From positions 248,001-312,000 of the forward strand of contig NZ_JACHIO010000001.1 in the NCBI RefSeq assembly GCF_014203225.1: DNA of 64,000 bases. The letters run 5' to 3'. Below the pieces are notes generated by a model. The model was not told the DNA's origin. It saw only the letters and a program-made list of their open reading frames with translations, and did no database searches. Below are positions 6,872 to 53,889 of the stretch, in pieces (positions within the stretch are counted from its first letter, which is position 1; the number at the start of each line of letters is the position of its first letter). The stretch comes from Granulicella mallensis (GTDB taxonomy: Bacteria > Acidobacteriota > Terriglobia > Terriglobales > Acidobacteriaceae). The position numbers were made by a program, and so were the translations under genes.

Positions 6872-9079
6872 TTACGGAAGGTCAATATCGAAACGGTAGA
6901 CCTCGCTCATGCCAGCTTGCTGCAGGACGACGGGCACGCCGTCAGGTGTGACCGAAAGGCGCCACGGGGGGAACCCCGTTCTTCGAAGCTTTTTTGCATC
7001 GAAATATTTCTCCACCTTGCCAGTGGAAGGGTATGCAGCAAAGATGCCATTGTCGGCACCCTGCCGCGTATCGAAAAAAACAGTCTTCGAATCAGGGCTC
7101 CAGATAAGATCATTCACCGGCTGGTCAGTTAGTTTTGACCAATGGCCCGTCTGGAAATCAAGGAGCATAAGTGCCTGGGTACCCGATGCCGTCGCGGCAA
7201 TGTATCTTCCGTCAGGGGACCAGCGAGCATTGTAGAGGCCCTCGGAGCCTGAGAGCTTTTCTTGCTGCCCGCTTTTGATGTCCCTGATTGTTATGAAGAT
7301 ATCTCCCTGCAACTGAAAGCCCCGGTCAACATCTTGTCCGTATGCGACTTTATCTCCCTTGGCGGAGAAGGTCGCGACCCCGCTAACCTGGGCAGCATTC
7401 GTGAGGTTGCTCACCGAAAGTCCGTCCACTGATACCTCACAGATCTGCCATGCCTCACCTGGGATTGCGCATTGATAGACGAGGTTGGCGCTGTCCGGTG
7501 ACCATTGCGGCGCCCGCGTCATCCTGCCAGGTCGACTCAACTGGAGTTTCTCCGAGCCATCGGGCCGGCTTCGCCATAGGCTTCCTCCCGGAAACAAGGT
7601 GTACGCGATCCAATGGCCGTCGCGGGAGAACGTCACCGTATCGGCTGAAAGATCTTCAGGGAGTGGCTGGACATAACTGCCTTCACCTCTCGGGAGTCGA
7701 ATTAATTCTCCTCTCGCCTCATGTCCGATTGCGTACAGACGTTTATTGTCGTGACTGATGATCGGTGCATTCCAGAAGTCAACAGGACCAGAGACGAGTT
7801 CCTGTTCAGTTTCCTTGAGCAGGAACTTGATATTTCGTCTTTCGTCTCGAATCCATAGAGAACTTCGATACCCCTCATCGACGACGTAGACAAAATATTT
7901 GCCATCGGAACTCCACGATCCGCAACATACCGTGTGTTCATGGGGACTACCAGCGAGAAGCGGTGTCAAAGAACCGTCGGCAACATTAATATCCAAGAGA
8001 CTTTGTCGATAGTCGCCCGCCCAGGTTGTGAGGCGGATGTGCTTTCCATCAGGAGACCACTCCGGCCAATATGCAACATTCGGCAGCGTAGCGAGCGTTC
8101 TTACGTTCCCTCCCGCTTGATCGGCGAGCAAAAGCTGCCTTCCCTTGATGACAGCGAGCGTATTCTCATCGGGAGAGACCGCGATGGTTCTCCCGCTCAG
8201 ACCGTCGAGATGGGACGCGCCCCCGGACGCAGACAACACGGTAAAGGGCGAAGCGGAATCCCACGGAACTCCAAAGAGCAGTCTGTAGGGTTCATGCACG
8301 ATGCTCAATCCTCGCCCTCCCGTCACCGGCGACGGAATGCGCATGATGCGTTCGCCATCCGTGTTGTACAGGGCAAGGTAATTAAGGTTGTCAATTGTTT
8401 CATTCACATAGAGGTAATCGCCGTTGAGTAGAAGCGGTAGATGTATGCTCTTCTGCATCCCGTCGTTTGTAACCCCTACTGATCGAAGAATCGTCGGGTG
8501 GGGTATGGATACGTGTCCAAGATTCCATCCGGCCAGACCAAGACACACAAGGAGTCCAATAATGAGGGTGAGGAGGAGCCTTTCGCGCGTAAGGAGCACC
8601 TTCACGTCTGAATACGCGCCGGGTCTCACCTGCTTCAATATTGTGGCGAAAGGCGACCGAACGTCTTCTCTTCCCTCGTTGACCGCAGGCTTTGAGAGCT
8701 GGTCGGCTTCAATACTGGTGGCTTCAGTATTTGTAGCTTCACTACTTGTGTAGCCCACACTATTCGGAACCAGAGCTGTCGGCGCCAGGCGATACCCCTG
8801 ACGTGAAACCGTCTCGATGAACTCTCCTCCATCCGGAAGCCTCCCCAGGGCTTTGCGCAAAAGGAAGATGGTTTGCGTTAGATTGCCATCTTCAACGATG
8901 GCATCCTTCCAAACAACCTCGAAGAACTTCTCCTTTGGAACGATGCGACCACGGGCGCTGACGATCAACTCAAGGGTCTCAAGTTGTCTCGTAGTAAGAC
9001 TAATGATCTCAAAATCTCTGCGTAATCTCAGTGGAGATCGTTCTAGCGAGAATGGTCCAAAGCGCTCTAAATTCTTCAT
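6872..9079 (-). CDS. CadC-like winged-helix regulator with TM segment and periplasmic WD40/TolB-type beta-propeller
   Basis: 735 aa from the ATG at 9079 (AAGGG eight bases upstream); in-frame starts at 9097 and 9112 are possible. Residues ~5-100 form an OmpR/CadC-type winged helix (LERFGPFSLE, LTTRQLETLELIV, VWKDAIVEDGNLTQTIFLLRKAL, FIETVSRQGYRL). A single membrane segment follows (LLLTLIIGLLVCLGLAGW), then about 500 residues of propeller blades with repeated WSPDGK/WSPDSK motifs (PEWSPDGKH, PQWSPDSAN, ARWSPDGRY, LIWSPDSKT). This is a common architecture in acidobacteria: a one-component membrane regulator whose outer part presumably senses a ligand. It is divergent from the sigma-54 activator at 9449. 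Target genes are unknown; the DUF1080 genes directly downstream are candidates. Confidence 0.88.
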   Translation of the reverse strand: MKNLERFGPFSLERSPLRLRRDFEIISLTTRQLETLELIVSARGRIVPKEKFFEVVWKDAIVEDGNLTQTIFLLRKALGRLPDGGEFIETVSRQGYRLAPTALVPNSVGYTSSEATNTEATSIEADQLSKPAVNEGREDVRSPFATILKQVRPGAYSDVKVLLTRERLLLTLIIGLLVCLGLAGWNLGHVSIPHPTILRSVGVTNDGMQKSIHLPLLLNGDYLYVNETIDNLNYLALYNTDGERIMRIPSPVTGGRGLSIVHEPYRLLFGVPWDSASPFTVLSASGGASHLDGLSGRTIAVSPDENTLAVIKGRQLLLADQAGGNVRTLATLPNVAYWPEWSPDGKHIRLTTWAGDYRQSLLDINVADGSLTPLLAGSPHEHTVCCGSWSSDGKYFVYVVDEGYRSSLWIRDERRNIKFLLKETEQELVSGPVDFWNAPIISHDNKRLYAIGHEARGELIRLPRGEGSYVQPLPEDLSADTVTFSRDGHWIAYTLFPGGSLWRSRPDGSEKLQLSRPGRMTRAPQWSPDSANLVYQCAIPGEAWQICEVSVDGLSVSNLTNAAQVSGVATFSAKGDKVAYGQDVDRGFQLQGDIFITIRDIKSGQQEKLSGSEGLYNARWSPDGRYIAATASGTQALMLLDFQTGHWSKLTDQPVNDLIWSPDSKTVFFDTRQGADNGIFAAYPSTGKVEKYFDAKKLRRTGFPPWRLSVTPDGVPVVLQQAGMSEVYRFDIDLP

Positions 9080-9448
9080 TTTATTACCCTTAGCCATCCA
9101 AACAAGCGTCAAACCATCAATTCCTTACCATTTGAGGACTTGCTAAGAACGTGATGCTACTTTGGGATCAATCAACGTTCGTATTAACCACAACCGTGAT
9201 GCCTAGTAGCAAAAGCTATGCCATTTCAAGATTTGCAGGTATGGAAGAGTTGAAATGTGTCCTGTATTGATATCGAGATCTGGTACGTATTTGAGATTAG
9301 GTGTAACTGCCGCTCACCTATGTGACATTCGTCACATGTCACAAGCGATACGTGTGTCAAGCTCCAAGCTGGATTTTCAGGGGTCGGAGATTAGTTCCGG
9401 CCTGTATTCGGGCCCAAAGGCAAAGAACTTTCTCGTAAAGGTGGTCCA
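9080..9448. other. Divergent control region between the CadC-like regulator and the sigma-54 activator
   Basis: 369 bp without a credible gene. It contains the Crp-type palindrome at 9321-9336 and, just after it, a further TGTCACA half-site. No GG-N10-GC sigma-54 promoter with good context was found towards the activator gene. Confidence 0.6.
9321..9336. promoter_or_regulatory. Crp/Fnr-family operator, TGTGA-N6-TCACA
   Basis: The 16-bp TGTGACATTCGTCACA matches the TGTGA-N6-TCACA consensus at all ten fixed positions. It lies 113 bp before the start codon of the sigma-54 activator at 9449 and 242 bp before the divergent regulator. The Crp-type protein at 53197 has a recognition helix of the type that reads TGTGA, so it is the natural candidate binder. 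Confidence 0.72.
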
Positions 9449-10912
9449 ATGCACACTCACTTAGCGGTAATCACTGCTAGTTCTGACGATGTAGTAACTA
9501 CGCGCTGTATGTCTGTATTTGAGGCGGAGGGTCACTCCTACCAAACGATCATCGATCCACAGAAGATCCTTCTTCTGCTTCGCGATGAGCATTCATGCGA
9601 CGTCTTACTTGTTGATATGGAACTTCCGTCTTTGCGTACCGGCAGGTTTCTAGAGGAGGTGGCCAGCAAAATGGACGTATCACGGCTATGGATCATCAGC
9701 CCGATGGGGACGACCTACTGGAGAAATGACGCTGAACGATTGGGAATACGAAATGTTATCTGGAAGCCTGTGCAACGGCATGATTTTGAGCGGGTTTTAG
9801 AGACAGTTTCCGTTCGCAAAGCAGCGATATTACCGGCACCTGCCGTTAGCCAAATCTCGAGCAAGCGACACGATACGCCTTGCTACATTGAAGACTTGCC
9901 CGGTGGGCGCTACTTTCTGGCAGCATGCCCAGCCATGATGAAACTCTACGAAACGGTTTGCCTGCTTGCGGCAGTGGACGTACCGGTCCTGATTCTGGGA
10001 GAAAGTGGTGTCGGAAAGGATGTTGTCGCAGCTCTCCTCCATAAGCACTCGCTACGCTCGTCCGCCTGCTACTCGTCCTTGAACTGTGCAGCTCTGCCAC
10101 CGGATCTGCTGGAAAGCGAGTTGTTCGGATACGAGGCAGGAGCCTTTACCGGGGCGATCAAAGCGAAGGCCGGAAAGTTTGAATTGGCTGACCATGGGAC
10201 GTTGCTTCTCGATGAGATCGGAGAAATGAGTGCACCCATGCAGGCCAAGCTGTTGCACGTTTTGCAGGACGGTCGCTATTCGCGCTTAGGAGCGCGCACC
10301 GAGTCTCATGTTGACGTCCGGGTGATCGCAGCAACCAATGTCGATATCGAGACGGCGATCGCACAGAATGCCTTTCGGGAAGACCTCTATTACAGAATTA
10401 GCGCCTTTACGATAGAAATTCCTCCACTTCGGGAGCGGAGAGAAGAGATTCCCTTTTTGATTGAACAACTCGTGCTCCACCATGCTGGTAGTCTGCGCCG
10501 CGACCCTGTTTATATCTCTCCAGAGGTGATGACGTTGATGATGGAATACCGCTGGCCAGGCAACCTGAGAGAGCTTTCCAATTACGTCATTCGTATCCAG
10601 GTACTTGGCAACACAGACAGAGTCAAGGCAGACTTGGAGGAGCGTATCCGTGGAACACGTGGGATCCACGCGGCACCTGTACCAGTGGTTGGAGAGGATT
10701 CGCAGGAGATAGCTGGCATGCGATTAATTGTCCGGACCCAGAGGGATCGGACAGAAAGCCGGCTTATTCAACAGGCACTAGAGGAATCTGGTTGGAATCG
10801 CCGTCATGCCGCTGTGGATCTCAACATCAGCTACCGTTCCTTGTTGTATAAGATCCAACAGTATGGGCTAACCCAGAACCGGCATCACATGACACACGCG
10901 CGAAGCGCCTAA
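9449..10912 (+). CDS. Sigma-54-dependent transcriptional activator (bEBP): degenerate receiver, AAA+, Fis-type HTH
   Basis: 487 aa; AAGGTGG precedes the ATG. Residues 1-125 are receiver-like: LLVDMELP offers the phospho-acceptor Asp and VIWKPV the conserved Lys, but the acidic pair expected after the first strand is replaced (VITASSDD). The AAA+ domain has Walker A GESGVGKD (~residue 183), GAFTGA loop intact (231-236), Walker B LLLDEIGE, and the arginine-finger region REDLYYRI. The C-terminus (~430-475) is a Fis-type helix-turn-helix (WNRRHAAVDLNISYRSLLYKI). GAFTGA marks true contact with sigma-54. It sits at the edge of the EPS locus and no partner histidine kinase is adjacent. It probably binds the TGCAA-N4-TTGC palindromes at 11002, 17036, 23746 and 30784; that link is inference. 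Confidence 0.93.
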   Translation: MHTHLAVITASSDDVVTTRCMSVFEAEGHSYQTIIDPQKILLLLRDEHSCDVLLVDMELPSLRTGRFLEEVASKMDVSRLWIISPMGTTYWRNDAERLGIRNVIWKPVQRHDFERVLETVSVRKAAILPAPAVSQISSKRHDTPCYIEDLPGGRYFLAACPAMMKLYETVCLLAAVDVPVLILGESGVGKDVVAALLHKHSLRSSACYSSLNCAALPPDLLESELFGYEAGAFTGAIKAKAGKFELADHGTLLLDEIGEMSAPMQAKLLHVLQDGRYSRLGARTESHVDVRVIAATNVDIETAIAQNAFREDLYYRISAFTIEIPPLRERREEIPFLIEQLVLHHAGSLRRDPVYISPEVMTLMMEYRWPGNLRELSNYVIRIQVLGNTDRVKADLEERIRGTRGIHAAPVPVVGEDSQEIAGMRLIVRTQRDRTESRLIQQALEESGWNRRHAAVDLNISYRSLLYKIQQYGLTQNRHHMTHARSA

Positions 10913-11262
10913 TAATAAATTTGCTCTGTATTTCAGGACACATCACCGGTAGACCTCCAGATTTACCCCTACAACCTCGGTTTTCCAATCAACCGCAACA
11001 ATGTGCAAAAACTTGCACATTGTTGCGGTTTGAGCTATGGTTTTCCTAACGCCGAAAGACGTGGTGATACTACCGCCATGTGCAATCAGGGCTTAGGTCT
11101 GGATCTTCTCCCCTTCAGCTAAGCGCCCCCCTCCCCCTTCCCCATAGTCTCTTTAGATCAGCGTCACTGTTCCTATACGCTCACGCCTCGTAGCGTGACA
11201 CATGGGCCATCCACAGTGCGTCACGCCGGCGCTGTGTCTGAAGAGTCTTCTCCGGAGTGCAA
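10913..11262. other. Intergenic region before the first beta-helix lipoprotein gene
   Basis: 350 bp with no credible gene. It holds the large palindrome at 10991-11030, a lone TGTGCAA half-site at 11079-11085 and a pyrimidine-rich stretch at about 11125-11145. A GG-N10-GC pattern with good sigma-54 context was looked for between 11090 and 11250 and not found; the nearest patterns (around 11038 and 11062) match the consensus poorly. Confidence 0.5.
10991..11030. promoter_or_regulatory. Large palindrome containing upstream-activator-like site (copy 1: 11002-11019)
   Basis: Perfect inverted repeat, arms 10991-11008 and 11013-11030, 4-nt centre AAAC. Its inner part, TGTGCAA-AAAC-TTGCACA, has the same core and spacing as three other palindromes in the EPS locus. 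It follows the activator gene by 78 bp and precedes the beta-helix lipoprotein gene by about 240 bp. It could also fold as a terminator for the activator gene, but no U-tract follows. Confidence 0.65.
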
Positions 11263-13492: not shown

Positions 13493-14314
13493 CTAGGTGG
13501 ATAGGATCAGAACCGGGAATCGTATACGCATGATCAGATCTTTTATGAGATGCAGTTGCTCTTGTTGCACAAGATTCTTCTTCTGAGACAGACTGCAAAT
13601 AAGAATGTCTGCATTGTGCGCCTCGATAACATCTACAACGTTCTGCAAAGCTGCCTCTCGATTCGTCGTCGACTCTGTCTCCCCCACCCCTTCCGATAAA
13701 GGCCATTCCAAGCCAAGTTGGAGAGTATATAGAACTGCCCCAGCCTTCTCCGCAAATGCCTGGCTATACGATGAAGCTAAAACGCTAACATCGTCCAGCC
13801 CGGTTTCAACGTACAGAACACTTGCGAGACCAGCAGGAAGTCCGTATTCATTCGCCCGCACGCCGACTACAAAGAGCGAACATTGGTATGCGGGCAGAAC
13901 ATCTTCCAACAGAGCCTGTGCAGTGAGTTCGGCTTTCGTCAAGTCATGATTTGCAGTAACCACGAGCAGGTCTGCTTTGCGGTGTCGCGCCAACATGACG
14001 AGAATTGAGTTGACCGGGTGTCCCTCGTATAAGATCACCCGCGTTTGAATACCAGCCCCGGATAGCTTTGTCTTAACTCGCAACAAGTTCTTCCTCTTCG
14101 TATTTCGTATTCGAAGGATCTCAGGCGGGCTCATTGTCGTCGCAGGCTCGGTGGGAAGAACATTATCGATGATGTGAACGATGAGAACGAGAGAATGAAA
14201 CGTCCGCGCCAGGACTTTAGCGTAATCTATCGCCGCATCTGAATTAGCCGTAAGGTCGGTCGCCAGGAGTATCCTGGACAGGCTGAAATCCTTGCGGTGA
14301 GGGTCTAAGGTCAT
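13493..14314 (-). CDS. Universal stress protein (UspA-like), two-domain
   Basis: 273 aa from ATG 14314, which has GAGGTGG just upstream; the ATG at 14326 lacks a site. The first half shows the USP fold: RILLATDLTANSDAAIDYAKVLA, LVLIVHIID, and RKADLLVVTANHD, a variant of the usual nucleotide-loop strand. The second half (ASVLYVETGLDDVSVLASSYSQAFA, ADILICSLSQ, RFPVLILST) repeats the fold more loosely. The G-x2-G-x9-G ATP-binding motif is not recognisable, so ATP binding is doubtful. It is the last gene of a leftward unit with the aminotransferase and the initiating sugar transferase, 40 bp after the latter. Its role in EPS production is unknown. Confidence 0.8.
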   Translation of the reverse strand: MTLDPHRKDFSLSRILLATDLTANSDAAIDYAKVLARTFHSLVLIVHIIDNVLPTEPATTMSPPEILRIRNTKRKNLLRVKTKLSGAGIQTRVILYEGHPVNSILVMLARHRKADLLVVTANHDLTKAELTAQALLEDVLPAYQCSLFVVGVRANEYGLPAGLASVLYVETGLDDVSVLASSYSQAFAEKAGAVLYTLQLGLEWPLSEGVGETESTTNREAALQNVVDVIEAHNADILICSLSQKKNLVQQEQLHLIKDLIMRIRFPVLILST

Positions 14315-14354
14315 GTACCACCTCATCCGAATGACTCAATTGGAACCCTAAGTA

Positions 14355-17035: not shown

Positions 17036-17053
17036 GATGCAATCAGTTGCATA
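17036..17053. promoter_or_regulatory. Upstream-activator-like palindrome, copy 2
   Basis: GATGCAA-TCAG-TTGCATA: inner arms ATGCAA/TTGCAT are a perfect inverted repeat with a 4-bp centre, the same core and spacing as copies at 11002, 23746 and 30784. It lies in the middle of the divergent region between the aminotransferase operon and the epimerase gene. A half-site TGTGCAA follows at 17058. The rest of 16857-17233 shows no credible gene. Confidence 0.68.
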
Positions 17054-17166
17054 TCTATGTGCAAGAGCGAGGGCGGTCTTTGCGCAAGCGTTCTTTCATG
17101 CAGCCATACGGAGCACTCTAGCCTTATCACTCGGTGCATTCAGATCTACACACCTCAGAGCATGAT

Positions 17167-17182
17167 TGGCAGGGCACATGCA
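17167..17182 (+). promoter_or_regulatory. Candidate sigma-54 promoter (rightward, epimerase gene)
   Basis: TGGCAGGGCACATGCA keeps GG-N10-GC spacing and matches about 10 of 12 informative positions of the -24/-12 consensus. The predicted start is near 17192, about 40 nt before the ATG at 17234 and about 148 bp from the centre of the palindrome at 17036-17053. Confidence 0.6.
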
Positions 17183-23623: not shown

Positions 23624-23639
23624 GGCATGCAGGATGCCA
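23624..23639 (-). promoter_or_regulatory. Weak candidate sigma-54 promoter (leftward, wbpA operon)
   Basis: Minus-strand TGGCATCCTGCATGCC has GG-N10-GC spacing and about 8 of 12 consensus matches. The predicted start would be about two bases before the ATG at 23611, giving an almost leaderless mRNA, which lowers confidence. Confidence 0.3.
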
Positions 23640-23745
23640 AATGATTATGACGCTGGAGAAAACCAGGTTTCCCTCAGCTCATTCACTATCATCCCGGCAG
23701 ATACTAACCGAACAGCAGCACTCTGCCCTACCCCAGTCAAACGAG

Positions 23746-23763: not shown

Positions 23764-23839
23764 AGCTACGCAATCCGATATTCCTTCGGCGATCAAGTTG
23801 TATGCAAACAGGTTGCAAATACTTGCTCTTCTTCCTCTA

Positions 23840-23855: not shown

Positions 23856-23946
23856 AAGCTAATACCGCTCAGGAGCGGTGGCGCGGCGACTTGGCCGCCT
23901 AATTGCTATCTCCGTCATCAGGATTCTTCTGAAATTACTCAATGGA

Positions 23947-30783: not shown

Positions 30784-30801
30784 TGTGCAACGTATTGCAT
30801 A
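30784..30801. promoter_or_regulatory. Upstream-activator-like palindrome, copy 4
   Basis: TGTGCAA-CGTA-TTGCATA, identical in the first half to copy 1 and in the second half to copy 2. It begins 10 bp after the end of the GT4 gene and is centred about 106 bp upstream of the predicted start at the sigma-54 candidate 30873-30888, the usual enhancer distance for a bEBP. Confidence 0.68.
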
Positions 30802-30872
30802 GTGCAGCTGCAAATAGGTCTATTTACAAGCACTCGACGTGAATGTCCCAAGCTTTTCCCAGGTTTAATGTT

Positions 30873-30888
30873 TGGTCAGCGAATTGCC
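30873..30888 (+). promoter_or_regulatory. Candidate sigma-54 promoter of the assembly operon
   Basis: TGGTCAGCGAATTGCC has GG-N10-GC spacing and an intact TTGC at -12, with about 8 of 12 informative matches overall. Predicted start near 30899, about 22 nt before ATG 30921 and just upstream of its GAGGG ribosome site, so the geometry is good. Confidence 0.48.
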
Positions 30889-49930: not shown

Positions 49931-49946
49931 TGCAAGTGACGTGCCG
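49931..49946 (-). promoter_or_regulatory. Near-consensus sigma-54 promoter (leftward, acetyltransferase/GT4 operon)
   Basis: Minus-strand CGGCACGTCACTTGCA matches TGGCACG-N4-TTGCW at 11 of 12 informative positions, only the first T being C. Predicted start near 49921, giving a leader of about 83 nt before ATG 49838. No TGCAA-N4-TTGC palindrome was found within the 200 bp upstream. Confidence 0.75.
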
Positions 49947-50018
49947 AATCCTCTCTCCTCTACTATGTTTCGCAATACTCGATCTTTTTATTCGGTGAGA
50001 CCGCCGTATTGAGCTCTT

Positions 50019-50054: not shown

Positions 50055-51710
50055 ATGCGGATCACTTCTTACCGGGGGGATGTCCTACCCCTATTCGTGC
50101 TCATCGTATTCATTGCGAGTTGCGCAAGGGTAATCCACCCCAGCGCATTGGCCATGTCGTCGGACACGAGCGGCACGACCAGCACAGGAAGTCCGCCTCA
50201 CATCAACTACACCGACATCAACGTCGGCTCGAACACCGGCGGAGATACAGGAAACGGCGTCTACGTTCGGATCTTCGGGGCGAACTTTGGTTCGTCGCAA
50301 GGCTCAAGCCTGCTCACGTTGGGCGGAAAACTCATCACGAATTGCAGGCTCTGCTCCTGGACCAACAATCAAATCATTGCCCAGCTGGGACCAGCCGCAA
50401 AGACCGGAGACATCCATGTCGACGTCGCTGGTGCCCATTCGAATGGCGTACCCTTCACCGTCACCCCCACAACAATCCTCTTCGTCGCTGCAAACGGATC
50501 AGACTCAAACCGGGGAACCTTTGCCACGCCCTTCAAGACCTGGCGCGCTGCCTTTAACTCCGTCACCGATACTGACTCACACCCTCCGAAACAAAACACT
50601 GTCATCTACCTCGAACCTGGAGCCGTTGTGAACTTCGACGATGGACGCGGATATAGCGCAGTCCTATCGACCGATATCGGTGGCACTTCGCCCATCAAAC
50701 AGCTCTCCATCGTTGGATTCCCCGGTGGCACCGTCAACGTCGGCAGCACCTCTGTCACAGACGGCGTTCATGGCTGGGGTTCCTATCTCACCATCGCGGA
50801 TCTCACCATCGTTGGAAAGGTCTCCGCGATCGACGCTGAGAAAGGGAATGTACGCATCATCAACAACAGCCTGTCCTGTCCCTCACCTCCAACCGGCGTC
50901 GGAGGAGCCGCCTGCATCCTTGCTGAAACCGACACCCCAACCGACAGTTGGGTCTTCCAGGGCAACAATGTCCATGACACCGGGGGTAACGTCGACAAGA
51001 CTTATCACGCCATCTACTTCTCTTCAAATGCCAATCACGTGGAGTTCGGGTGGAACAACATCGGTGCAAACTTCCTGGGATACTGCCGCAGTGTCCTCTT
51101 CCACGCCACCACAGGCGCCAACCTCTTCGATCTGCACGTGCATGACAATCAGATCGCCGGCGGCTACTGCGACGCTATCAGCTTCGCCTCGGTCAATCCA
51201 TCCGCAGGCACCGTCGAGGCCTACAACAACGTAATCACGCACGTCGCTATCGCTTCAAATCCCTATGGAACCGCAAACGAAGCCGGCATCGCCATCAACT
51301 CCGATGCCTCGCCAGGAGCGAGCGGCACCGTCTACGCCTACAACAACACGGTTGTCGACGCCGGCGAATACACCATCGGCCACCAGAACGGCTGCTTTGG
51401 CGTGGTCAGCCCAGGGGTATCTCTCGTCCTTACAAACAACATCTGCATGCAGCCCAGTGCCGCTCAGCCGTACATCGAACCGAACAGCACAGGAGTCAGC
51501 GGCACCAACAATCTATGGTACGGAGCGGGACCTGCACCCAGGTTCGATCCACAACCAGTCATTCTTGCTCCACGCCTGGTATCGGCAACCGGCTTCGCCC
51601 TGCAGGCAGGATCTCCCGCCCATGCCGCGGGGACGATGACTCGGGTATCTATCTTCGACATCATCGGGACACAGCGAAGTCCCGCCCCGTCCATCGGCGC
51701 CTACGAGTAG
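50055..51710 (+). CDS. Secreted right-handed beta-helix lipoprotein, paralogue of the 11263 gene
   Basis: 551 aa. Lipoprotein signal with a good lipobox IASC ending at Cys23. After a short linker come HINYTDINVGSNTGG and an IPT/TIG-like segment (VRIFGANFGSSQGSSLLTLGG), then the parallel beta-helix with Asn-rich turns (IINNSLSC, FQGNNVHDTGG, AYNNTVV, LTNNICMQ). By eye it is about two-thirds identical to the protein at 11263 across their shared ~520 residues, and lacks that protein's Ig/TPPPT extension. Catalytic residues were not identified. Its position at the right border of the EPS locus, same strand as the left copy, suggests a duplicated accessory factor for the polymer. Confidence 0.82.
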   Translation: MRITSYRGDVLPLFVLIVFIASCARVIHPSALAMSSDTSGTTSTGSPPHINYTDINVGSNTGGDTGNGVYVRIFGANFGSSQGSSLLTLGGKLITNCRLCSWTNNQIIAQLGPAAKTGDIHVDVAGAHSNGVPFTVTPTTILFVAANGSDSNRGTFATPFKTWRAAFNSVTDTDSHPPKQNTVIYLEPGAVVNFDDGRGYSAVLSTDIGGTSPIKQLSIVGFPGGTVNVGSTSVTDGVHGWGSYLTIADLTIVGKVSAIDAEKGNVRIINNSLSCPSPPTGVGGAACILAETDTPTDSWVFQGNNVHDTGGNVDKTYHAIYFSSNANHVEFGWNNIGANFLGYCRSVLFHATTGANLFDLHVHDNQIAGGYCDAISFASVNPSAGTVEAYNNVITHVAIASNPYGTANEAGIAINSDASPGASGTVYAYNNTVVDAGEYTIGHQNGCFGVVSPGVSLVLTNNICMQPSAAQPYIEPNSTGVSGTNNLWYGAGPAPRFDPQPVILAPRLVSATGFALQAGSPAHAAGTMTRVSIFDIIGTQRSPAPSIGAYE

Positions 51711-51732
51711 ACCGCCGTGCGCCGCAGCCTCT

Positions 51733-51934
51733 TCGGCGAGCGGAAAGTGGATACTTCTCCTCTGCACAAAACGAATGGTATCGGCGCCTGCTGATCGACC
51801 TGAAAGGGTACGACTCGGGCCATATCCGCCGCAGTGCGCCTGAAAGTTTATTCGATCCAACTCAATATATCTTCTCGAAAGCCCATCAAGCACATGACGA
51901 GGGGATCGAGATTGTGACAAAGATCACTGCATGA
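51733..51934 (+). pseudogene. Possible remnant of a gene 3' end, unidentified
   Basis: An open frame ending in TGA at 51934 has coding-like composition after the beta-helix gene (FSSAQNEWYRRLLIDLKGY, then SLFDPTQYIFSKAHQAHDEG), but no start codon with a ribosome site. I do not recognise the family. It may be the tail of a gene lost by deletion; it may also be chance. Confidence 0.3.
51913..51928. promoter_or_regulatory. Imperfect Crp-like site
   Basis: TGTGACAAAGATCACT matches 9 of 10 fixed positions of TGTGA-N6-TCACA. It overlaps the possible gene remnant and is about 350 bp before the PAS gene, so its function is doubtful. Confidence 0.3.
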
Positions 51935-52274: not shown

Positions 52275-52913
52275 ATGAGCAATAGACTCAACATCAATGT
52301 AGACGCAATCAAAAAGCGACTTAACAGCCCAGACGAACTTCTTGAGCCAGCAGGGGAGCGGGCGGCCACTCTCTCGGAAAACGAGAATGAACGATTCTCC
52401 AAGGCAATCCAGGCTCTGCAGAAAGCATCACCCGCCCTAGAAGTCTTAGTCTCTGCCGTTGAACACGCTCACGATGCAATCATCGTGACTGAAGCCGGCC
52501 AACTCGATCCGCCGGGGCCGCGCATCGTATACGTAAATGAGACCTTCACGAAGACAACAGGTTACACCTTTGATGAAGCGTTTGGACGCTCACCGCGCAT
52601 GCTCCACGGACCAAAGACCGATCGGGCTGCTCTCGACCGTATCCGCAAGGCGTTGACCTGTGGGGAGTCAATCCGAATAGAACTCGTCAACTATCGGAAA
52701 GATGGGAGCGAATTCAACGTGGATCTATCGATAGCGCCGATGAAGGACGAAAATGGGTGGTTTTCTCATTTTGTGTCGATCCGGCGAGACGTTACAGAAC
52801 GGGACTACCTTCGCAAGAGACTGCAAGAGAGTGAAGACCGGGTACGCGCTCTAACGGAGGCCATCCCTCAACTCTCGGAAACAGCTATCATACCTAAACA
52901 AATTAAGCAATAA
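52275..52913 (+). CDS. PAS-domain protein with LOV-like sequence lacking the photoactive cysteine
   Basis: 212 aa. Residues ~60-175 are a PAS domain very like LOV domains: IVYVNETFTKTTGYTFDEAFGRSPRMLHGPKTD, then VNYRKDGSEFNVDLSIAPMKDENGWFSHFVSIRRDVTERD. In LOV photoreceptors the matching segment is GRNCRFLQG with a cysteine that bonds to flavin; here that position is a proline (GRSPRMLHG). A short coiled coil follows (LRKRLQESEDRVRAL), and there is no kinase or other output domain, so it may act on a partner protein. It precedes the Crp-type gene by 283 bp on the same strand. Flavin binding without the light reaction, or another ligand, is possible. Confidence 0.85.
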   Translation: MSNRLNINVDAIKKRLNSPDELLEPAGERAATLSENENERFSKAIQALQKASPALEVLVSAVEHAHDAIIVTEAGQLDPPGPRIVYVNETFTKTTGYTFDEAFGRSPRMLHGPKTDRAALDRIRKALTCGESIRIELVNYRKDGSEFNVDLSIAPMKDENGWFSHFVSIRRDVTERDYLRKRLQESEDRVRALTEAIPQLSETAIIPKQIKQ

Positions 52914-53196: not shown

Positions 53197-53889
53197 ATGC
53201 TGAAATGTCTCAACTGCCCACAACTTGGGAAGAATCCGTTTTGTAGTCTCGGTTCCGACGCACAAGCATTCCTGGAAGAGTCCTCAACAGAACTCAGCTA
53301 TCCCCAGGGAAGCATCATCTTTCGCGAAGGCGATCAAAGTCACGCTGTATACTTCCTCTGTTCTGGGAAGGTCAAGCTTTGTGCGTCCTCGAAAGATGGT
53401 CGAACCATGATTCTCCGCATTGCGCAGGCCGGCGAGGTCCTGGGTATAAGTGCCGCACTTGCAAAGGGAGAATTTGAGGTGACGGCCGAAGTATTGGAAC
53501 CGTCTTCTGTTCGTGTTCTAAAAAGCAAAGATTTTGATCAAATGCTCCACCGTTATGAGGAAGCGGGCGCTGCAGCCGCAAAGTCGCTGGTACGCGACTA
53601 TAAGGCAGCCTTCGACGATGCCAGGATGCTTGCCTTATCCAGCTCTGCGAAAAGTCGACTAGCTATGCTAATCCTTAGTTGGAGCGCCACGAATGCGAAA
53701 CTTCCGGTCCCCGCAGCCTTCATTAAAATGACATTTACTCATGACGACCTTGGGGCAATGACCGCAACGTCCCGAGAAACCATGACCCGAGCTCTGGGAC
53801 AACTGCAAAGGGACAAAATCATTGCGGTCCACGGAATTGCTCTCACGGTGCTGAATCCATCGGCTCTTGAAGCGTATGCCACGTCATGA
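53197..53889 (+). CDS. Crp/Fnr-family transcriptional regulator
   Basis: 230 aa; GGGAG precedes the ATG. N-terminus has three close cysteines, C4, C7 and C16 (CLNCPQLGKNPFC). Effector domain ~20-125 with the beta-roll (SIIFREGDQSHAVYFLCSGKVKL, GRTMILRIAQAGEVLGISAAL); the R and S residues that bind cAMP in Crp are not clearly kept. Long central helix, then a winged helix at ~175-215: FTHDDLGAMTATSRETMTRALGQLQRDKIIAVHG. The recognition helix SRETMTR carries the R-E-x-x-x-R pattern of Crp, which reads TGTGA, and not the E-x-x-S-R of Fnr. The perfect TGTGA-N6-TCACA site at 9321 is a likely target. Effector unknown; the cysteines could bind a metal or an iron-sulphur cluster. Confidence 0.92.
   Translation: MLKCLNCPQLGKNPFCSLGSDAQAFLEESSTELSYPQGSIIFREGDQSHAVYFLCSGKVKLCASSKDGRTMILRIAQAGEVLGISAALAKGEFEVTAEVLEPSSVRVLKSKDFDQMLHRYEEAGAAAAKSLVRDYKAAFDDARMLALSSSAKSRLAMLILSWSATNAKLPVPAAFIKMTFTHDDLGAMTATSRETMTRALGQLQRDKIIAVHGIALTVLNPSALEAYATS

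What the first reader, a model, noticed from the sequence alone, without database searches (positions are those of the whole stretch)
9321..9336. Perfect Crp-type operator before the EPS activator gene, with a matching Crp-type protein in the same window
TGTGA-N6-TCACA is exact. The regulator at 53197 has R-E-x-x-x-R in its recognition helix as in Crp, so it should read TGTGA. This suggests a two-step cascade, Crp-like protein to bEBP to EPS promoters, with both regulators bracketing the locus. Its three N-terminal cysteines raise the chance that the signal is redox or metal rather than cAMP.
Basis: partly seen in the sequence, partly recalled or inferred. Interest (0 to 1): 0.65.

Follow-up and report, generated by a model that had tools for sequence, protein, structure and literature searches.

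The report
FNR-like operator before EPS activator gene
A soil acidobacterium carries one perfect binding site for a Crp/FNR-type regulator, probably an oxygen or redox sensor rather than a cAMP sensor, in front of the gene that switches on its exopolysaccharide cluster, so slime production may be tied to oxygen supply.

Summary
The site is real: TGTGACATTCGTCACA at 9321-9336 is exact, the only one in the window (0.06 expected), and the only intergenic exact match in the 6.47-Mb genome. The genome encodes four Crp-family proteins, and only this one has the R-E-x-x-x-R helix. In relatives, genes for this Crp group carry a GTGATTGAAATCAC-type palindrome 12 bp before a sigma-54-type promoter of their own gene. 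In those genomes TGTGA-N6-TCACA is enriched (17 vs 1, 11 vs 1, 10 vs 2 against a reversed control). It lies before universal-stress, pyruvate:ferredoxin oxidoreductase, [NiFe]-hydrogenase, acetate kinase and cytochrome genes, an FNR-like low-oxygen regulon. cAMP-contact residues are lost, no class III adenylate cyclase was found, and four cysteines are invariant, so a redox or Fe-S signal is the better guess. The EPS activator has its own, different putative enhancer site (TGCAA-N4-TTGCA) before EPS promoters, so 9321 is not its UAS. T. roseus has the same kind of site before its orthologous activator; most relatives do not. Bracketing of the EPS locus is not conserved. The sign of control, and binding itself, remain untested.

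The parts
9321..9336 (.). Crp/FNR-type operator TGTGACATTCGTCACA, 112 bp upstream of the ATG at 9449
   Evidence: exact; unique in window; only intergenic exact match in the genome; identical in sister species G002 and the only exact site shared with it
9337..9343 (.). Third half-site TGTCACA, giving an overlapping wider inverted repeat with the left arm
   Evidence: arms 9321-9328 / 9336-9343; meaning unknown
9449..10912 (+). Sigma-54-dependent activator (bEBP) P0002: weak receiver domain, AAA+ with GAFTGA, Fis-type HTH; presumed EPS activator
53197..53889 (+). Crp/FNR-family regulator P0001 with CxxC-x8-C plus C55 and an SRETMTR recognition helix; proposed ligand of the 9321 site
6872..9112 (-). 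Divergent gene: winged-helix (Trans_reg_C) plus TolB-like propeller; alternative target of the site
9208..9224 (-). Sigma-54-type -24/-12 element ATGGCATAGCTTTTGCT reading toward the 6872-9112 gene
   Evidence: score 0.97; at least 0.95 in none of 3000 random 260-nt stretches
17036..17053 (.). Putative bEBP enhancer (UAS), core TGCAATCAGTTGCA, between divergent EPS genes
17166..17182 (+). Sigma-54-like promoter TTGGCAGGGCACATGCA downstream of the 17036 UAS (implies a later start for the 17057 ORF)
23801..23821 (.). Putative bEBP UAS TATGCAAACAGGTTGCAAATA between divergent EPS operons
23891..23907 (+). Sigma-54-like promoter TTGGCCGCCTAATTGCT
23624..23640 (-). Sigma-54-like promoter TTGGCATCCTGCATGCC of the divergent UDP-glucose dehydrogenase gene
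30784..30801 (.). Putative bEBP UAS TGTGCAACGTATTGCATA before the polysaccharide-export gene
30872..30888 (+). Sigma-54-like promoter TTGGTCAGCGAATTGCC (weaker; implies a later start for the 30843 ORF)
52275..52913 (+). PAS-domain protein directly upstream of and co-directional with the Crp-type gene

Best explanation
The 9321 palindrome is a genuine operator for the Crp/FNR-family protein encoded at 53197. That protein belongs to an acidobacterial group that works like FNR: a four-cysteine, probably Fe-S or otherwise redox-sensing dimer that reads TGTGA-N6-TCACA and, in relatives, controls low-oxygen and stress genes. In this lineage the group's regulon has shrunk to essentially one site, in front of the gene for the sigma-54 activator (9449). 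The activator then binds TGCAA-N4-TTGCA enhancers and fires sigma-54 promoters of the EPS operons. Shown by sequence: the operator, its uniqueness, the sole matching Crp paralogue, the relatives' operator and targets, and the separate EPS enhancers. Inferred: binding, the O2/redox signal, and the cascade. Unknown: the sign (activation or repression).
For: Exact unique site, conserved in sister G002 as the only shared exact site. Four Crp-family proteins in the genome; the other three have QRSTV, TRPTV or SRPTV helices. 14 of 30 P0001-like loci in relatives have a (T/A)GTGATTGAAATCAC-type palindrome at a fixed spacing before TTTGGCA-N6-TTGC, just upstream of the crp gene. In the genus this composite occurs about once per genome, with 0-1 mismatches in ten genomes. 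Exact TGTGA-N6-TCACA is enriched over control in relatives: 17:1, 11:1, 10:2, 8:0, 9:0. Most sites examined in G005 and G001 lie upstream of genes such as Usp, PFOR, citrate synthase, acetate kinase, NiFe hydrogenase and cytochromes c. G005 has TGTGACGTTCGTCACA before PFOR, one base from the window site. T. roseus has TGTGATTTCAATCACA 38 bp before the orthologous activator and G275 has AGTGATTTATGTCACT at -39; an exact site within 400 bp of any tested orthologue was expected about 0.005 times. Four invariant cysteines in 30/30; CRP's cAMP contacts are lost; no class III cyclase. Precedent for the logic: holo-FNR represses the capsule activators rmpA/rmpA2 in Klebsiella (PMC6828653).
Against: P0001's own promoter lacks the auto-operator found in relatives, and it sits on a long branch (0.8 changes per site), so its specificity could have drifted. 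Activator orthologues in T. albidus-like genomes, G169, G250, G058, G067 and G046 have no such site. No sigma-70-type promoter is recognisable in 9100-9460, so how the site acts is unclear. The fourth FNR ligand (C122) aligns with R106; C55 is an unproven substitute. Binding was not tested. Some relatives carry a second RET-type paralogue, so their regulons need not belong to P0001's orthologue alone.
Confidence: 0.62

Rival explanations
1. The palindrome is the activator's own enhancer (UAS), used for autoregulation or for the divergent sigma-54 promoter at 9224(-).
For: It is an inverted repeat about 97 bp from a strong sigma-54-like element (score 0.97); bEBP sites are often inverted repeats and bEBP genes are often autoregulated (general knowledge).
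Against: The inverted repeat before EPS sigma-54 promoters in the window and in T. roseus and T. albidus is TGCAA-N3/4-TTGCA, quite unlike TGTGA-N6-TCACA. No TGTGA-N6-TCACA is found at the EPS promoters. Relatives' TGTGA sites associate with Crp genes and metabolic genes.
Confidence: 0.1
2. The site is a Crp-type operator but its main target is the divergent winged-helix/propeller gene (6872-9112), not the EPS activator.
For: The site lies between divergent genes, and a strong sigma-54-like promoter faces the 9112 gene. In relatives this Crp group's site is placed next to sigma-54-like promoters.
Against: In T. roseus and G275 the site stands before the activator without that divergent gene. 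Spacing to the 9224 element is about 97 bp, not the 12 bp seen in relatives.
Confidence: 0.12
3. A classical cAMP-CRP operator read by a cAMP-sensing Crp.
For: The sequence equals the E. coli CRP consensus and the helix has R-E-x-x-x-R.
Against: E72, R82 and S83 of CRP become I84, V95 and T96. No class III cyclase in the genome at the family threshold, while the control genomes respond. Four invariant cysteines. The regulon in relatives is anaerobic or stress-related.
Confidence: 0.06
4. A chance match without function, or a decayed remnant.
For: Genome-wide counts equal the reversed control (3 vs 2; 23 vs 19 at one mismatch); most orthologues lack it.
Against: Exact, intergenic and conserved in the sister species. 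The same operator class lies before the same gene in T. roseus, where about 0.005 were expected over all orthologues tested. The core resembles real regulon sites in relatives.
Confidence: 0.1

Closest known systems
E. coli FNR
   Same: Crp-fold regulator with an N-terminal cysteine cluster. Relatives' targets (PFOR, hydrogenase, acetate kinase, cytochromes, Usp) look like an oxygen-limitation regulon.
   Different: CxxC-x8-C instead of CxxC-x5-C. The fourth FNR ligand C122 is R106 here; C55 is the invariant candidate. The operator is CRP-type TGTGA..TCACA, not TTGAT..ATCAA.
E. coli CRP (CAP)
   Same: Same operator pentamers and the R-E-x-x-x-R recognition helix.
   Different: Lacks the cAMP-contact residues; 22% identity; no class III adenylate cyclase found in the genome.
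Klebsiella FNR-RmpA/RmpA2-capsule cascade (PMC6828653)
   Same: Two-step logic: an FNR-type regulator controls a polysaccharide activator gene.
   Different: RmpA is not a sigma-54 activator; the Klebsiella effect is repression, while the sign here is unknown.
DctD2-type/NtrC-family EPS activators (e.g. Vibrio vulnificus, PMC9040800)
   Same: A sigma-54 activator drives EPS gene clusters.
   Different: P0002's receiver domain is weak (below the Pfam cut-off); the inferred input is transcriptional, through a Crp/FNR-type site.

Membership tests
Crp/FNR superfamily (P0001) | cNMP-binding-fold domain plus Crp-type HTH | tested here: met
   PF00027, PF13545 and PF00325 all above their cut-offs
cAMP-CRP | cAMP phosphate/ribose contacts E72, R82, S83 | tested here: not met
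   I84, V95, T96 in the BLASTP alignment
cAMP-CRP | R-E-x-x-x-R recognition helix reading TGTGA | tested here: met
   SRETMTR; relatives' operator is TGTGA-N6-TCACA
FNR (strict) | Three N-terminal cysteines plus a cysteine equivalent to C122 | tested here: not met
   C4, C7, C16 and C55 invariant; the C122 position is R, K or L
FNR (strict) | ExxSR helix / TTGAT-N4-ATCAA operator | tested here: not met
   RETxTR helix; TGTGA-type operator
FNR-like function | Control of anaerobic or micro-oxic genes | tested here: met
   In relatives only, by operator position; not shown in the window's genome
FNR-like function | O2-labile Fe-S cluster | not testable with these tools
   Needs anaerobic purification; the single-sequence structure model was useless (pLDDT 33)
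Sigma-54 enhancer-binding proteins (P0002) | AAA+ domain with GAFTGA and Fis-type HTH | tested here: met
   PF00158, PF02954; GAFTGA in the sequence
Sigma-54 enhancer-binding proteins (P0002) | Inverted-repeat UAS upstream of -24/-12 promoters in the target locus | tested here: met
   TGCAA-N4-TTGCA and -24/-12 elements; also in T. roseus and T. albidus

The most novel reading that the evidence does not exclude
The 53197 protein represents an undescribed acidobacterial oxygen/redox-sensor class: a Crp-fold protein whose cluster is held by CxxC-x8-C plus a cysteine in the beta-roll (C55) instead of FNR's C122. It reads a CRP-type operator and in relatives feeds back on its own sigma-54 promoter next to a paired NtrC-type regulator. 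In the window's lineage this global regulon collapsed to a single operator that puts exopolysaccharide under oxygen control.
Probability: 0.38. Interest if true: 0.68.

Novelty: new variant of a known kind. Interest (0 to 1): 0.52.

Why it matters
I found no paper in the held library that describes an FNR-type regulon in Acidobacteriaceae or how their EPS is regulated. A defined operator, its only matching regulator and the downstream EPS enhancers in one window make the oxygen-to-EPS link testable with one protein and one 16-bp site. The relatives' regulon gives an independent readout (PFOR, hydrogenase, Usp).

Tried and rejected
(1) Genome-wide enrichment of the motif in the window's own genome: none, so a global CRP regulon here is rejected. 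(2) The palindrome as the bEBP's UAS: rejected because EPS promoters carry a different repeat. (3) Phylogenetic footprinting over about 30 activator homologues: the site is found only in the window species, its sister, T. roseus and (looser) G275; I report it as not generally conserved. (4) Class I/II activation geometry: no sigma-70 promoter recognised, so no sign is assigned. (6) The TGCAA-N4-TTGCA at 11004 was dropped from the UAS set because it lies inside a 16-bp perfect hairpin (10993-11028) right after the activator gene and looks like a terminator. (7) The direct partner gene of relatives' Crp (a divergent NtrC-type regulator) has no clear orthologue among the own-genome activators. 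(8) Literature searches for an acidobacterial FNR or EPS regulator found nothing specific.

Full report
What is there. TGTGACATTCGTCACA at 9321-9336 is exact and lies between two divergent genes. These are a winged-helix/propeller protein (6872-9112, minus strand) and a sigma-54 activator (9449-10912, plus strand; AAA+ with GAFTGA and a Fis-type HTH, with a receiver-like N-terminus below Pfam's cut-off). It is the only exact match in the window (0.06 expected). In the whole 6.47-Mb genome there are three exact matches against two for the reversed control, and the other two are inside long ORFs. With one mismatch allowed the count is 23 against 19. So the genome holds no detectable regulon of this consensus, but it holds one perfect intergenic copy. 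A third half-site (9337-9343) overlaps it.

Which protein could read it. The genome has four Crp-family proteins (two weaker hits are LacI- and GntR-like). Three have QRSTV, TRPTV or SRPTV recognition helices; only the 53197 protein (P0001) has SRETMTR. It has 22% identity to E. coli CRP; the residues that hold cAMP (E72, R82, S83) are I84, V95 and T96. No class III adenylate cyclase was found, while the search responded in five control genomes. Other cyclase classes were not searched for.

What relatives say about the operator. Orthologues of P0001 at about 45-56% identity occur in the same genus and in Terriglobus. In 14 of 30 P0001-like loci the intergenic region upstream of the crp gene holds a palindrome of the type (T/A)GTGATTGAAATCAC at a fixed 12-bp spacing before a -24/-12 element TTTGGCA-N6-TTGC. 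In several of these loci the gene on the other side is a divergently read NtrC-type response regulator. A genus-wide scan for the composite found it about once per genome, with 0-1 mismatches in ten genomes and almost none in the control. A looser sister branch has TGTGATTTCAATCACA in the same place. In these genomes exact TGTGA-N6-TCACA is enriched over the reversed control: 17:1, 11:1, 7:1, 7:2, 10:2, 8:0, 9:0, 7:2. Most of the copies I checked in G005 and G001 lie just upstream of genes. The genes include universal stress proteins (several genomes), pyruvate:ferredoxin oxidoreductase (two genomes), citrate synthase (two), acetate kinase, [NiFe] hydrogenase (two sites), an NADH dehydrogenase chain and c-type cytochromes. 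The crp locus itself carries a PAS histidine kinase, a response regulator, Usp genes, phosphoketolase and nitroreductase. This is what an FNR-type regulon looks like. The G005 PFOR site, TGTGACGTTCGTCACA, differs from the window site by one base. Some of these genomes also encode a second RET-type paralogue, so I ascribe the regulon to the group, not strictly to P0001's orthologue.

Signal. All 30 P0001-like proteins have CxxC-x8-C at the N-terminus and a cysteine 51 residues after the first one (C55 in P0001); the position of FNR's fourth ligand C122 is R, K or L. This favours a metal or Fe-S centre with a ligand set that is not FNR's. It is an inference: no structure model of use was obtained.

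What the activator does. In T. roseus and T. albidus, perfect -24/-12 elements in the downstream EPS region are preceded by ATGCAA-N3-TTGC inverted repeats. The window has the same repeat at 17036, 23801 and 30784, all before EPS genes (three exact TGCAA-N{3,4}-TTGCA against 0.16 expected, counting one at 11004; for 23801). Each has a -24/-12-like element downstream. Genome-wide, TGCAA-N{3,4}-TTGCA is found 16 times against 3 for the control, three of them in this 1% of the genome. The copy at 11004 sits in a 16-bp perfect hairpin right after the activator gene and is more likely a terminator. So the activator's probable enhancer is TGCAA-N4-TTGCA, and the 9321 site belongs to someone else.

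Does the operator belong to the activator gene? Among orthologues of the activator at 50-60% identity, T. roseus has TGTGATTTCAATCACA at -38 and G275 has AGTGATTTATGTCACT at -39; those in T. albidus-like genomes, G169, G250, G058, G127, G067 and G046 have no comparable site near the gene (G127 has a one-mismatch copy at -357). The chance of an exact site within 400 bp of any orthologue tested is about 0.005. In T. roseus the neighbouring gene is co-directional, so the activator is the shared downstream gene. In the sister species G002 the site is identical and is the only exact site shared with the window's genome. Against this, a strong sigma-54-like element at 9224(-) faces the divergent gene and leaves that gene as a second candidate.

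How it most likely works. Low oxygen, or another redox cue, sets the state of P0001. P0001 binds 9321-9336 and changes transcription of the activator gene; the activator, with its own input if any, fires the sigma-54 EPS promoters. The steps shown by sequence are the operator, the only matching regulator, the relatives' operator and targets, and the separate EPS enhancers. Binding, signal and sign are inferred. I do not assign activation or repression: no sigma-70 promoter is recognisable near the site, and in T. roseus the site is close to the start codon, which would suit repression. A published parallel is Klebsiella, where holo-FNR represses the capsule activators rmpA and rmpA2 (PMC6828653).

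The operator and its pairing with the 53197 protein hold up, and the redox guess is strengthened. 'Bracketing' is local: the two genes are 44 kb apart here and in G002, but more than 1 Mb apart in T. roseus and on separate contigs in G067. In relatives this Crp gene has, by promoter anatomy, a sigma-54 promoter next to an NtrC-type regulator, so the direction of wiring between Crp-type and bEBP-type proteins has differed between lineages.

Membership. P0001 is a Crp/FNR-superfamily member. It fails the tested defining features of cAMP-CRP (pocket) and of strict FNR (fourth cysteine, helix, operator), so I file it as a variant that works like FNR, not as FNR.

Noticed in passing
9208-9224 (-): Strong sigma-54-type -24/-12 element before the winged-helix/TolB-propeller gene, with no TGCAA-N4-TTGCA enhancer nearby; which activator serves it is unknown.
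   Followed up: partly
10993-11028: 16-bp perfect hairpin with 4-nt loop directly after the activator gene; probably a terminator although it contains TGCAA-N4-TTGCA.
   Followed up: partly
49931-49947 (-): Sigma-54-like element TCGGCACGTCACTTGCA before the acetyltransferase/glycosyltransferase pair (49838-47953), without the enhancer repeat.
   Followed up: no
50055-51934: ORF 50055-51710 appears to continue in another frame as 51515-51934; possible frameshift. The one-mismatch TGTGACAAAGATCACT at 51913 lies in that tail.
   Followed up: no
17057 and 30843 (ORF starts): Sigma-54-like elements lie inside the 5' ends of these ORFs, and the first has a 60-residue extension before its Rossmann fold; true starts are probably later.
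   Followed up: partly
13493-14326 (-): A universal stress protein gene sits inside the EPS locus; in relatives Usp genes are the commonest neighbours and targets of the Crp group.
   Followed up: no
L068-L076 upstream of crp (e.g. L071): Long inverted repeat GGGTGAAATGGCGCAG...CTGCGCCATTTCACCC between crp and the divergent NtrC-type regulator, probably that regulator's enhancer.
   Followed up: no
L136 / G352 C1:2599000-2614000 and about 3060000: T. roseus appears to carry two identical copies of the crp/Usp/kinase region (identical crp hits and identical operator sets about 460 kb apart).
   Followed up: no
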